Source of the DNA: Hymenobacter terrestris
GTDB lineage: Bacteria; Bacteroidota; Bacteroidia; Cytophagales; Hymenobacteraceae
Reading direction: 5' to 3'
Length of the DNA stretch: 64,000 nucleotides
Assembly (NCBI RefSeq): GCF_013377905.1
Contig: NZ_JABKAV010000002.1
Coordinates: forward strand, 62,001-126,000
A program made the position numbers and the translations under genes. Positions within the stretch are counted from its first letter, which is position 1; each line of letters starts with the position of its first letter. Shown one piece after another: positions 1 through 2,125 of this stretch. The notes below the pieces were generated by a model. That model worked only from the letters and a program-made list of their open reading frames with translations, was not told where the DNA came from and ran no database searches.

Positions 1-4
1 ACGC

Positions 5-43
5 AAAAAGGCCGCGTTTCCAATCTGGAAGCGCGGCCTTTTT
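5..43. terminator. Bidirectional intrinsic terminator
   Basis: An inverted repeat pairs AAAAAGGCCGCG (5-16) with CGCGGCCTTTTT (32-43), with additional pairs toward the loop. A-run and T-run flank the stem, so it can stop transcription from either side. It ends the DUF4276 gene, whose stop codon begins at 48, and probably a gene lying left of the window. Confidence 0.8.
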
Positions 44-47
44 AAAT

Positions 48-650
48 TTATAAGTGAGTCAGTCCCTGCCGGAAATATTGAAAGCTGGGTGACTGATTTC
101 TGTCTGGGTCCAAATGCGGAGCAATGGTTTCGGCCCATTCTACTTTGGCTTTACCGACCAGATAATACTTACCCTGTTGCAACACGCGCCACAGCGTTTC
201 CCAAGTATCGGCAATGGCATCGGGGTCATTGCCTAGGCCACCGAAATGTTGCGGGCGCACCCGCGGATACGCCGCCTGAATAGCGGCTCGGTCGCCCAAA
301 AACCAGGCTTCCAGCTCCTGCACGGCTAAGCGGGTGAGGATGCAGAAGGGCTGGCCGGGGCCAGCGGTGGTTTTGGTTAGCAGGCCACCATCGGCTACTA
401 TCTTTTCCAGCTCGGACTTGCGGCGCCGGCAGTCGGTGTCGGCGTCCATCAGGATAACCACCCGCAAATCGGGCTGGTGAGGCAGCTGGCGGGCGTAGGT
501 TTTCAGCCGGCCGGGCAAACGCTGGAACAGATCGGTTTTGCCGCGGTGCGGGAAGCAGGCCCACGTAGCACCGGGCGGCAACAACTTGGGCAGCAGAATA
601 TCCAACGCTGCTTTCGCCGATTCTTCTTCGAGGAGAAACTCGATGTGCAT
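48..650 (-). CDS. DUF4276 family protein, TOPRIM-like, partner of AAA ATPase
   Basis: A 200-residue protein of the DUF4276 type. What is visible: a hydrophobic N-terminal strand followed by a glutamate cluster (E8-E10), then a strand ending in an acidic D69-x-D71-x-D73 motif. That E ... DxD order resembles TOPRIM nuclease/primase folds, although this is inference from motif order alone. A second acidic/aromatic motif, ELEAWFLGD, sits at 112-120. The ATG at 650 is only one base after the stop of the upstream ATPase gene, so the two are almost certainly cotranscribed and translationally linked. ATPase plus TOPRIM-like partner is the design of OLD/Gabija/PARIS-type anti-phage systems; I infer a related role here but no function is proven for this pairing. 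Confidence 0.75.
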   Translation of the reverse strand: MHIEFLLEEESAKAALDILLPKLLPPGATWACFPHRGKTDLFQRLPGRLKTYARQLPHQPDLRVVILMDADTDCRRRKSELEKIVADGGLLTKTTAGPGQPFCILTRLAVQELEAWFLGDRAAIQAAYPRVRPQHFGGLGNDPDAIADTWETLWRVLQQGKYYLVGKAKVEWAETIAPHLDPDRNQSPSFQYFRQGLTHL

Positions 651-651
651 A

Positions 652-1899
652 CTACCGGGCCGCAGGGGTGCGAGGAGTCAACGGGTCGCCGAGGCGGAAG
701 AAGTTGCTGGTCCAGAGGTAGCCCAGCGGCGAGCCGTCTTCTACCAGCTCTTTCACCTGCGGAATATCCGCAGTGCGCGTAGCCTGAGTGTAGCCATCGT
801 CGCCCCGGTGCAGAATCCAGACCTGCTCCGGCTCCAACGCATCGAGCAGAAATGGCGAGTGAGTAGCCACCAGCAACTGCCGCGTGTCGGTGGCCTTCAG
901 CAACTCCTCGGCCAAGCGCGGTAAAAGGCGCGGGTGCAGTTCGTTTTCCGGTTCCTCAATCCCCAGCAGCCCAGTAGCGTTGGGCTCGTAGAGCAGCGTT
1001 AGCAGCGCCGCCAGCCGCATGGTGCCATCCGACATGTACTGGGCCGGCAACGGCTTCTCAAACGCCGCATCTTTGAAGCGGAGCAGTAGGCGCTCATCGG
1101 AGGTTATTTCCGGCACCACATCGGCCAGCTGCGGCACCCAGCGCCGGAGCTGTGCCGTGATGCGGGCCAGCGTTTCGGGGTGCTTCTCGTGCAGGTAGTA
1201 CAGCACATTGGGCAGGTTGTCGCCGTTATCCGAGAGCTTCTCCCGCGGCCCGGCATCGGAGTAGCCCTTCAGGTGGTCGTCGGTGAGGTGGATGTAGCGG
1301 TAGGATCGAAATAAACTTGCTAGTTCTGAATCTATACCTACCACTTGGCCTTCTTCTGTTCGGTTAAACAGGTGTGAATAATATAGGTAGGGATTCTTCC
1401 CAGGAATAATTCGCATCTGGTCGTCTGTATCGCTATAATAAGCGTTTCTGACGACGGCCCCTCTAACATCACCATGTGGTTTAGTAAGTACTGGCTGGTT
1501 TGCGTAGAATAATCTGATCATAGTTGATCCAGTTATCCAAAAAACTTCATTGGCAACATCAAGTTGATCTTCTTGCTCAATAAAGCTCACTTCGTAGTGG
1601 ACACGAGTATTTTTTGATAGAAGCGCACCCACCTCAAACTCAATCGGTCCTTCCTGCCCACGCGTCCGTATGCCGGCGAAGCGGTTACGCTTTTCCCAGG
1701 CTTGTTGCAGGTTACCGCTCACCGCTTCGGCCAGAAACGCCAGCGCGTCGAGGATAGTGGATTTACCGCTACCGTTAGGACCGATGAACACCGTCAGCGG
1801 CGTCAGGTCGCGTAGTTCCACGTCGCGCAGTGCGCGGTAGTTTTTGATACGTAGATAAGTGAGACGAGGGTAGCCGGGGGCCGCGGCAGTATCAGACAT
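652..1899 (-). CDS. AAA family ATPase (AAA_15/AAA_21, OLD-like)
   Basis: A 415-residue ABC/SMC-type ATPase. Walker A is GPNGSGKS at 40-47, the signature-like motif MSDGTMR at 289-295, Walker B with GIEEPE near 313-318, and the H-switch ATHSP at 345-349. The N-terminus (LRIKNYRALRDVEL) is the usual strand pair of RecF/OLD-like proteins. Between Walker A and the signature, roughly residues 83-198, the DNA is clearly AT-richer than both flanks (see findings); this is the region that in such ATPases forms the variable insertion domain. It is the first gene of a two-gene unit with the DUF4276 gene. It may act as the sensor/motor of a defence complex; a role in DNA repair is the main alternative. 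Confidence 0.85.
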   Translation of the reverse strand: MSDTAAAPGYPRLTYLRIKNYRALRDVELRDLTPLTVFIGPNGSGKSTILDALAFLAEAVSGNLQQAWEKRNRFAGIRTRGQEGPIEFEVGALLSKNTRVHYEVSFIEQEDQLDVANEVFWITGSTMIRLFYANQPVLTKPHGDVRGAVVRNAYYSDTDDQMRIIPGKNPYLYYSHLFNRTEEGQVVGIDSELASLFRSYRYIHLTDDHLKGYSDAGPREKLSDNGDNLPNVLYYLHEKHPETLARITAQLRRWVPQLADVVPEITSDERLLLRFKDAAFEKPLPAQYMSDGTMRLAALLTLLYEPNATGLLGIEEPENELHPRLLPRLAEELLKATDTRQLLVATHSPFLLDALEPEQVWILHRGDDGYTQATRTADIPQVKELVEDGSPLGYLWTSNFFRLGDPLTPRTPAAR

Positions 1900-2125
1900 G
1901 AGGCAAGGCGGTAGTTGCTACAAAGTACGGGGTTTGGCAGGATGTACGTTGAATCGCTCCGCTTTACCCAGTTATCCCAATTATACAACGGACGAAGCTG
2001 GCGATGCTCCAAGCCACTCTGACCGTGCTCGACCAGCATGCCCGCCGCTCGGGGGCCGGTGAGTGTAGCACGGCAAGTTGGGGCTTCACCATTCGGGATT
2101 TGTGCTAACCAGCCCTCTGCTCACA

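What the first reader, a model, noticed from the sequence alone, without database searches (positions are those of the whole stretch)
48..1899. AAA ATPase + DUF4276 two-gene unit as a candidate defence system
Seen: an OLD/RecF-like ATPase with all ATP motifs and a one-base gap to a DUF4276 gene with an E...DxD motif order like TOPRIM. Known: ATPase + TOPRIM-like nuclease pairs are the core of OLD, Gabija and PARIS systems. Inferred: this pair is a related, poorly described system. The unit has its own terminator and is compact.
Basis: partly seen in the sequence, partly recalled or inferred. Interest (0 to 1): 0.7.

Follow-up and report, generated by a model that had tools for sequence, protein, structure and literature searches.

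The report
Swappable-sensor ATPase–nuclease phage defence pair
Two neighbouring bacterial genes look like a small antiviral alarm, a sensing ATPase tied to a nucleic-acid-cutting partner, whose middle piece differs in almost every related species and which sits near a chromosomal spot where such defence genes come and go.

Summary
The two-gene unit is real. Both genes match PADLOC's catalogued candidate HEC-01 (ATPase 5.8e-136, DUF4276 1.5e-80), so the pairing is already listed; I found no paper that tests it. DUF4276 folds confidently (pLDDT 94) and aligns best with TOPRIM regions of class 2 OLD nucleases (Z 9.3-11.3).

New here: (1) in 26 of 26 Hymenobacter-lineage genomes the ATPase has a hypervariable middle cassette (residues 95-198) with low third-position GC, 0.35 against 0.74-0.82. 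It tracks neither host nor partner. (2) The ATPase C-terminal segment co-varies with two DUF4276 types. (3) The pair mostly lies near mfd, whose 3' end is a defence-gene hotspot: 37 of 60 genomes of one group have a low-GC islet there; 15 of 30 islet proteins match defence models, 0 of 10 controls.

Most likely a split OLD-like sensor-nuclease; trigger, target and protection are inferred.

The parts
652..1899 (-). OLD/PtuA-like ABC ATPase, 415 aa (PADLOC HEC-01A); putative sensor/regulator
48..650 (-). DUF4276 protein, 200 aa (PADLOC HEC-01B), predicted OLD-type TOPRIM nuclease
1306..1617 (-). hypervariable low-GC3 cassette of the ATPase (residues 95-198), inferred sensor
676..939 (-). ATPase residues 321-408, which co-vary with DUF4276 type; inferred docking segment (positions 388 and 398 match the type in 25 of 25 genomes)
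438..446 (-). DxD motif D69-x-D71 of DUF4276, invariant in 40 of 40 rows
624..629 (-). E8/E9 of DUF4276, the likely TOPRIM glutamate (39 of 39 rows with a residue)
   Evidence: role by analogy to PMC6755086 (passages)
309..317 (-). E112-x-E114 of DUF4276, 40 of 40 rows; likely counterpart of T506/E508 of class 2 OLD
4..44 (.). palindromic terminator-like stem between convergent mfd and the pair
   Evidence: not listed by the pattern scan
1921..1927 (-). promoter-like TACTTTG upstream of the ATPase, within 60 bases in 26 of 26 Hymenobacter-lineage sequences (its identity as a Bacteroidota -7 box is recalled)

Best explanation
It is a two-gene anti-phage system of the split OLD kind. The ABC ATPase (HEC-01A) is a regulator that senses infection through its exchangeable middle cassette (residues 95-198). 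Its C-terminal segment (about 321-408) holds or activates the DUF4276 protein, a two-metal TOPRIM nuclease. On sensing a phage trigger, ATP-dependent rearrangement releases or switches on the nuclease, which cuts nucleic acid, more likely host RNA/tRNA (abortive infection, as in PARIS) than invader DNA. Shown here: gene pair, family, predicted TOPRIM fold, conserved residues, hypervariable cassette, C-segment/nuclease co-variation, location at a defence hotspot. Inferred: sensing by the cassette, docking by the C segment, nuclease activity, target, abortive outcome, and protection itself.
For: HEC-01A/B matches. The ATPase is next to DUF4276 in 27 of 28 loci found across phyla (L029 has only DUF4276 fragments) and in all 29 other genus loci returned for the 59 PF14103 matches, weakly in four; some of these are the same places as the named loci. 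DUF4276 model pLDDT 94.2, with OLD TOPRIM regions 6nk8 Z 11.3 (165 aligned), 6njv 9.6, 6njx 9.4 and 6njw 9.3. ATPase fold nearest PtuA of Septu/retrons and T. scotoductus OLD. Cassette: identity median 22% (shuffled 18.7%) against 80-82% in flanks; mean GC3 0.353 against 0.742/0.815, lowest of the three parts in 26 of 26; no correlation with host Mfd or DUF4276. C part against DUF4276: partial correlation 0.69, Mantel p 0.0005. mfd 3' flank: low-GC islet in 37 of 60 genomes of one group against 1 of 29 others; 15 of 30 islet proteins hit PADLOC against 0 of 10 controls. Pair beside type I restriction genes in L014, L019, L021. DUF4276 remnants in relatives.
Against: No phage data. Foldseek alone found no significant match (none at E 0.001); the TOPRIM rows come from the second aligner. 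The location near mfd is conserved across the lineage, which also fits long residence. The window's own locus is GC-neutral and shows no mfd-tail fragment, so recent insertion is not shown there. Host-clade monophyly is not rejected in the DUF4276 tree (AU p 0.2) or in the C-part tree (p 0.23), so exchange of the nuclease is suggestive only. The C segment adjoins the nuclease gene, so linkage alone could give part of the co-variation. In 13 pairs from other phyla the middle region is not hypervariable. Four of the seven distant loci scanned had no restriction gene among the neighbours given.
Confidence: 0.66

Rival explanations
1. Same pair, but the nuclease degrades incoming DNA directly (restriction-like or anti-plasmid), without killing the host.
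For: The closest folds are OLD class 2 TOPRIM regions, which cleave DNA in vitro (PMC6755086, passages). Three distant loci have the pair next to type I restriction genes.
Against: The nearest split system by layout, PARIS, cleaves tRNA (PMC12409363, passages). The named window neighbours are mfd, a fasciclin-domain protein and nicotinate phosphoribosyltransferase, not a methylase or specificity gene.
Confidence: 0.3
2. A chromosomal DNA-repair or cell-cycle ATPase-nuclease working with Mfd, kept for housekeeping.
For: In 23 of 24 genomes with both on one contig the pair is within 16 kb of mfd. An archaeal OLD protein, Cran1, is reported to work in the cell cycle and not in defence (PMC12796447, passages).
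Against: The ATPase is found in 33 of 120 genus genomes at E 1e-40 while mfd is in 119 of 120. DUF4276 remnants exist. None of the 16 loci from other phyla shows a match to the window's Mfd within the held flanks, some of them short. The hypervariable cassette is unlike a housekeeping enzyme (inference).
Confidence: 0.1
3. A toxin-antitoxin pair (nuclease toxin, ATPase antitoxin) selected mainly for its own maintenance.
For: Two-gene layout with a one-base gap. PARIS has been described as a toxin-antitoxin system (PMC11455837, whole text).
Against: The exchanged middle cassette suggests a recognition role that plain addiction does not need. Remnants at the site show that the pair can be lost.
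Confidence: 0.12
4. The middle cassette is hypervariable through relaxed constraint or alignment artefact and has no recognition role.
For: In 13 pairs of other phyla the same region is conserved, so variability is not a general need of the family.
Against: In 26 of 26 genomes the cassette is an open frame of 98-121 aa between flanks about 80% identical. Its GC3 is the lowest of the three parts in 26 of 26. Alleles 61-73% identical recur in species with different DUF4276 types (four pairs). Amino-acid change is below synonymous change in the 8 pairs compared, so it is constrained.
Confidence: 0.15

Closest known systems
HEC-01 (PADLOC-DB 2.0.0 candidate)
   Same: Both proteins match its A and B models; adjacent genes.
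   Different: No described mechanism found. The Hymenobacter branch has a hypervariable low-GC3 cassette that 13 pairs of other phyla lack.
PARIS (AriA/AriB; class 4 OLD)
   Same: OLD-type ABC ATPase and TOPRIM nuclease in separate adjacent genes (PMC12796447, passages).
   Different: Nuclease is DUF4276, with no AriB model among its 14 PADLOC families.
Class 2 OLD / Gabija GajA
   Same: Predicted TOPRIM plus helical domain closest in structure; conserved E, DxD and a second acidic pair.
   Different: ATPase and nuclease are split into two genes; the other neighbour named by models is mfd, not a GajB-like UvrD helicase.
Septu / retron PtuA
   Same: ATPase fold is nearest by Foldseek.
   Different: Partner is DUF4276, not the HNH nuclease PtuB (PtuB's type is recalled).
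WonAB / PD-T4-4
   Same: OLD-ABC ATPase sensor with a separate nuclease. The nuclease is predicted to bind the ATPase C-terminal extension, and insert regions vary between related systems (PMC12137116, passages).
   Different: WonB is a PD-(D/E)xK nuclease, not TOPRIM.

Membership tests
HEC-01 | ATPase matches HEC-01A model | tested here: met
   PDLC04182 E 5.8e-136 over residues 11-405
HEC-01 | Adjacent partner matches HEC-01B model | tested here: met
   PDLC04202 E 1.5e-80 over 1-200; one-base gap
HEC-01 | PADLOC's own system rule and score cut-offs | not tested
   only the models were searched
HEC-01 | Embedded in an Hma locus (origin of the name) | not tested
   no Hma search was made; the pair lies beside mfd in this genome
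TOPRIM nuclease (OLD type) | TOPRIM fold | tested here: met
   VIA-align Z 9.3-11.3 to four OLD C-terminal structures, 163-165 of 200 aligned; first row outside OLD and PH0156 at 6.9. A predicted model; Foldseek alone gave none at E 0.001
TOPRIM nuclease (OLD type) | Motif glutamate, glycine after strand 2, DxD (as listed in PMC6755086) | tested here: met
   E8 and E9 in 39 of 39 rows with a residue, G37 in 38 of 40, D69 and D71 in 40 of 40; strands 2-7, 29-34, 62-70. Matched by order and position, not by superposed side chains
TOPRIM nuclease (OLD type) | Metal-dependent nucleic acid cleavage | not testable with these tools
   needs biochemistry
PARIS | AriB (DUF4435) nuclease | tested here: not met
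   DUF4276 is the only Pfam family at E 1; no AriB among its 14 PADLOC families
Gabija | ATPase and TOPRIM in one protein | tested here: not met
   two separate ORFs
Septu | PtuB HNH partner | tested here: not met
   partner is DUF4276
anti-phage defence system | Protects against phage | not testable with these tools
   needs plaque assays

The most novel reading that the evidence does not exclude
The pair is a three-module immune receptor: a fixed ABC engine, a swappable low-GC recognition cassette drawn from an outside allele pool, and a C-terminal segment plus TOPRIM nuclease exchanged as one block. It rides at a defence hotspot at the 3' end of mfd, in which inserts leave duplicated mfd tails behind, so that both the receptor's sensor and the whole locus are repeatedly replaced.
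Probability: 0.45. Interest if true: 0.78.

Novelty: new variant of a known kind. Interest (0 to 1): 0.62.

Why it matters
For most OLD-type defence ATPases the phage-sensing part is not known (my judgement; PARIS is the exception that I read about). Here evolution appears to label the parts: a cassette that changes independently of host and partner, and a segment that changes with the nuclease. That makes sensor and docking site directly testable by exchanging segments between natural alleles. The mfd 3' site also offers an easily found place to look for new defence genes: 15 of 30 tested islet proteins match no PADLOC model at E 1e-10.

Tried and rejected
Foldseek alone on the DUF4276 model gave no significant match; the TOPRIM call rests on VIA-align of Foldseek's own candidates. 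phmmer of DUF4276 against solved structures gave only chance-level matches (best E 0.26). A literature search for DUF4276 found no paper. 'HEC-01' as a whole word found five papers, one relevant (PMC12724379 only lists it, one passage), and 'Hma embedded candidate' one (a table row in PMC10855318). The main text of the PADLOC web-server paper (PMC9252829) holds neither 'HEC' nor 'Hma'. Searches for mfd as a defence hotspot gave nothing on point in the listings; the two 'mfd' hits in PMC12137116 concern the strain MFDpir. A search on Hymenobacter with defence terms listed no Hymenobacter paper among its first 8 of 822. PMC7544218 (Krishnan et al. 2020) is not held.

Rejected: that the DUF4276 tree proves nuclease exchange, since AU does not reject host-clade monophyly (p 0.2); kept as suggestive. 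Rejected: fast positive selection as the whole cause of cassette diversity, because synonymous divergence of the cassette exceeds both flanks in 7 of 8 pairs compared and is saturated in 5. Rejected: unrelated domains swapped in, because 25 of 26 cassettes are joined by weak matches at E 0.01. A site-specific integrase at mfd was considered: the mfd-tail fragments begin at different positions and no integrase family appeared among the family hits of the 30 islet proteins, 26 of which were also scanned with Pfam; small ORFs were not searched.

Dropped rows: in the mfd-tail count, hits of 34-50 bases within 71 bases after the mfd stop (only hits in six genomes: G111, G103, G004, G117, G056, G024; a fourth hit in G005) and one minus-strand hit in G114. 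G072 was left out because its ATPase N part is broken; it is, where its N part is only 44 aa. Eleven of 41 genomes with low-GC ORFs were not given to PADLOC, near-duplicates among them. The 10 controls were taken from 16 candidates, are GC-rich and mostly shorter than the islet proteins, and so are not matched. The GC threshold for islets and the two genome groups were set after I had looked at the data. The group of 60 includes H. gummosus and H. edaphi, which the Mfd tree places outside the window's clade; neither has an islet.

Full report
What is there. The window starts 11 bases after the stop codon of a convergent gene that matches the mfd model TIGR00580 (E 6.7e-288). On the minus strand lie a 415-aa ABC ATPase (652-1899) and, after one base, a 200-aa DUF4276 protein (48-650). 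A palindromic stem between mfd and the pair (window 4-44; 13-bp outer stem) folds at -26.7 kcal/mol, z -6.45; the simple pattern scan did not list it. It lies between two convergent genes and so is not the pair's own. Within 60 bases upstream of the ATPase a TACTTTG box is present in 26 of 26 Hymenobacter-lineage sequences. The right-hand neighbours are a fasciclin-domain protein and a nicotinate phosphoribosyltransferase. Named loci identify the lineage as Hymenobacter.

Family. PADLOC-DB gives HEC-01A for the ATPase (5.8e-136) and HEC-01B for DUF4276 (1.5e-80). So the pairing is catalogued, but I found no paper with a mechanism: DUF4276 is in none of the held papers, and HEC-01 or HEC is only listed as present in two. 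In 28 loci from the species-genome collection (12 Hymenobacter, 16 others) the ATPase lies next to DUF4276 in 27; the exception, L029, has only DUF4276 fragments. The other hosts are Poribacteria, Verrucomicrobia including Akkermansia, Thiotrichaceae, Chloroflexi and Vicinamibacteraceae. I scanned neighbours in 7 of the 16; in three (L014, L019, L021) the next gene is a type I restriction subunit, and the genes given from the other four were not of that kind. Among 390 genomes of the order (129 genera), the ATPase at E 1e-45 occurs in 16, all of the window's genus; one further genome of the family, in another genus, has it too. DUF4276 relatives occur in 10 records of the plasmid set (one of chromosome size) and 1 phage record, all below 60% identity.

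Nuclease. The AlphaFold2 model of DUF4276 from 40 sequences has mean pLDDT 94.2. Foldseek alone lists nothing at E 0.001. VIA-align of Foldseek's candidates ranks the C-terminal regions of class 2 OLD proteins first, third, fourth and fifth (6nk8 Z 11.3, rmsd 3.6, 165 aligned; 6njv 9.6; 6njx 9.4; 6njw 9.3), with PH0156 second (10.8) and other folds from 6.9 down. In class 2 OLD the metal ligands are E400, E404, D455, D457, T506 and E508, with K562 near (PMC6755086, passages). DUF4276 has E8/E9 after strand 1 (39 of 39 rows with a residue), G37 after strand 2 (38 of 40), D69-x-D71 around the end of strand 62-70 (40 of 40), E112-x-E114 at a helix start (40 of 40), and K169 (39 of 39). The correspondence is by order and position, not by superposed side chains; no clear match to E404 was identified.

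ATPase. Its fold (mean pLDDT 81) is nearest PtuA of Septu/retrons and T. scotoductus OLD. Across 26 Hymenobacter-lineage genomes, 20-residue blocks have column identity 0.72-0.95 between residues 21 and 80 and between 201 and 380; residues 121-180 have 0.13-0.16. The cassette 95-198 has median pairwise identity 22% (5-95% of shuffled pairs 14-24%), against 80% and 82% for the N and C parts. Its mean third-position GC is 0.353 (range 0.27-0.43), against 0.742 (0.41-0.85) and 0.815 (0.68-0.91), and is the lowest of the three in 26 of 26, barely so in G072. Synonymous divergence of the cassette exceeds both flanks in 7 of 8 compared pairs and is saturated in 5, which points to exchange of old alleles. 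Species share similar cassettes but different DUF4276: G016-G036 73% cassette, 48% DUF4276; G001-G026 66% and 57%. In 13 pairs of other phyla the same region has median identity 59% (flanks 71-72%) and no consistent GC3 drop, so this is a feature of the Hymenobacter branch as far as sampled.

Three modules. DUF4276 falls into two types (11 and 15 genomes, support 96/99). Both types occur in host clade 2 (10 genomes, one side of a branch in the Mfd and whole-ATPase trees) and outside it. Holding type II together is rejected for Mfd (AU 2.8e-50) and for the ATPase (0.018). The reverse, holding host clade 2 together in the DUF4276 tree, is not rejected (0.2), nor in the tree of the ATPase C part (0.23). 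With 25 genomes and given Mfd distance, DUF4276 similarity correlates 0.69 with the ATPase C part (Mantel p 0.0005), 0.32 with the N part (p 0.003) and -0.08 with the cassette (p 0.87); cassette against Mfd is -0.01. Cassette identities are near the shuffled level, so a weak correlation there could be missed. By block the correlation with DUF4276 rises from 0.25 (281-320) to 0.62 (321-360) and 0.74 (361-408). Positions 388 (D/E) and 398 (S/R) match the type in 25 of 25. For 361-408 the correlation is strongest with the near end of DUF4276, so linkage explains at least part of it. Docking on C-terminal extensions was predicted for WonAB (PMC12137116, passages).

Location. PF14103 is found in 43 of 120 genus genomes, 39 over its cut-off, and the ATPase at E 1e-40 in 33 of 120. 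Of the 28 genomes with the close ATPase (E up to 1.6e-120), the pair is under 1.3 kb from mfd in 8, 1.3-4 kb in 5, 4-16 kb in 10, farther in 1, and on another contig in 4. DUF4276 remnants lie near mfd in L029, L067, L076, L079 and L098. I then read the mfd 3' flank in 89 genomes (87 of the 119 genus genomes with mfd, plus H. gummosus and H. edaphi; not a random draw). In the group with the window, 37 of 60 have a low-GC islet (mean GC of the first 1.5 kb below 0.42) right after mfd, against 1 of 29 outside it (Fisher p 4e-8); two and one more have a low-GC stretch within 4 kb. The window's own site is among those without. The islet genes differ from genome to genome: among 67 low-GC ORFs of 41 genomes 10 pairs match at 1e-8. 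Main proteins of 30 islets were scanned: 15 hit PADLOC at 1e-10, against 0 of 10 control genes after mfd in the other group (Fisher p 0.006). Many PADLOC hits are shared ATPase domains, so system names should not be read off them. Pfam adds NACHT over its cut-off in three more (L081, L115, L120). Close relatives carry other islets there: G035 a GmrSD_N protein, G003 an HATPase protein.

Insertion traces. Extra truncated copies of the mfd 3' end (85 bases or more, same orientation) lie downstream in 12 of 89 genomes (G005, G014, G015, G016, G023, G031, G051, G062, G066, G080, H. gummosus, H. edaphi; one search had found 9 of 49 before the later fetches). In five of these (G005, G016, G051, H. 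gummosus, H. edaphi) a fragment begins 65-164 bases upstream of the ATPase start. G005 has three, and its pair lies between two of them. The window's locus has none. Over 15 genomes mfd itself is less conserved in its last 480 bases (81-86% identity, against 86-93% in the 1,320 bases before), which could also be ordinary C-terminal divergence. Together this fits repeated insertion at, or replacement of, the mfd 3' end. The enzyme or process is unknown.

Mechanism. PARIS is the closest worked example: AriA holds AriB, a phage protein releases it, and AriB cuts tRNA (PMC11455837, whole text; PMC12409363, passages). TOPRIM-linked OLD-ABC dyads are known as a wider group (PMC12839542, passages). 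By analogy the cassette is the trigger sensor, the C segment the dock and DUF4276 the cutter. Sensing, docking, target, outcome and protection are inferred. A housekeeping role beside mfd, as for the archaeal Cran1 (PMC12796447, passages), fits the location but not the patchiness, remnants and cassette.

Verdict. A real, already catalogued defence candidate (HEC-01); here a new variant, because of its hypervariable cassette, two-type nuclease module and defence-hotspot site.

Noticed in passing
L063-L142 downstream of mfd (e.g. L065 648-2397, L072 555-2318, L080 561-1763, L103 8229-9434, L111 8102-9532): Low-GC islets at the mfd 3' end include main proteins without a PADLOC match (15 of 30 tested), and a recurring two-gene pair (440+151 aa in G088, 426+159 aa in G015): candidates for undescribed defence systems.
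   Followed up: partly
L085 (three copies), L084, L005, L011, L012, L029, L072, L081, L101, L122, L124, L127: Duplicated, truncated mfd 3' ends mark likely past insertions; their start points differ, so a simple fixed attachment site is not evident.
   Followed up: partly
L029 3665-3881 and 8001-8168: In a close relative of the window's genome the ATPase is not found and DUF4276 C-terminal fragments remain at two places beside mfd.
   Followed up: partly
L019, L021, L014: In Poribacteria, Akkermansia and Verrucomicrobiales the pair lies beside HsdR-like genes (and an HsdS-like gene in L019).
   Followed up: partly
ATPase residues 95-198 in 26 genomes: Why the cassette keeps low third-position GC in every allele, inside a high-GC gene, is unexplained; islet genes at mfd share low GC3.
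   Followed up: partly
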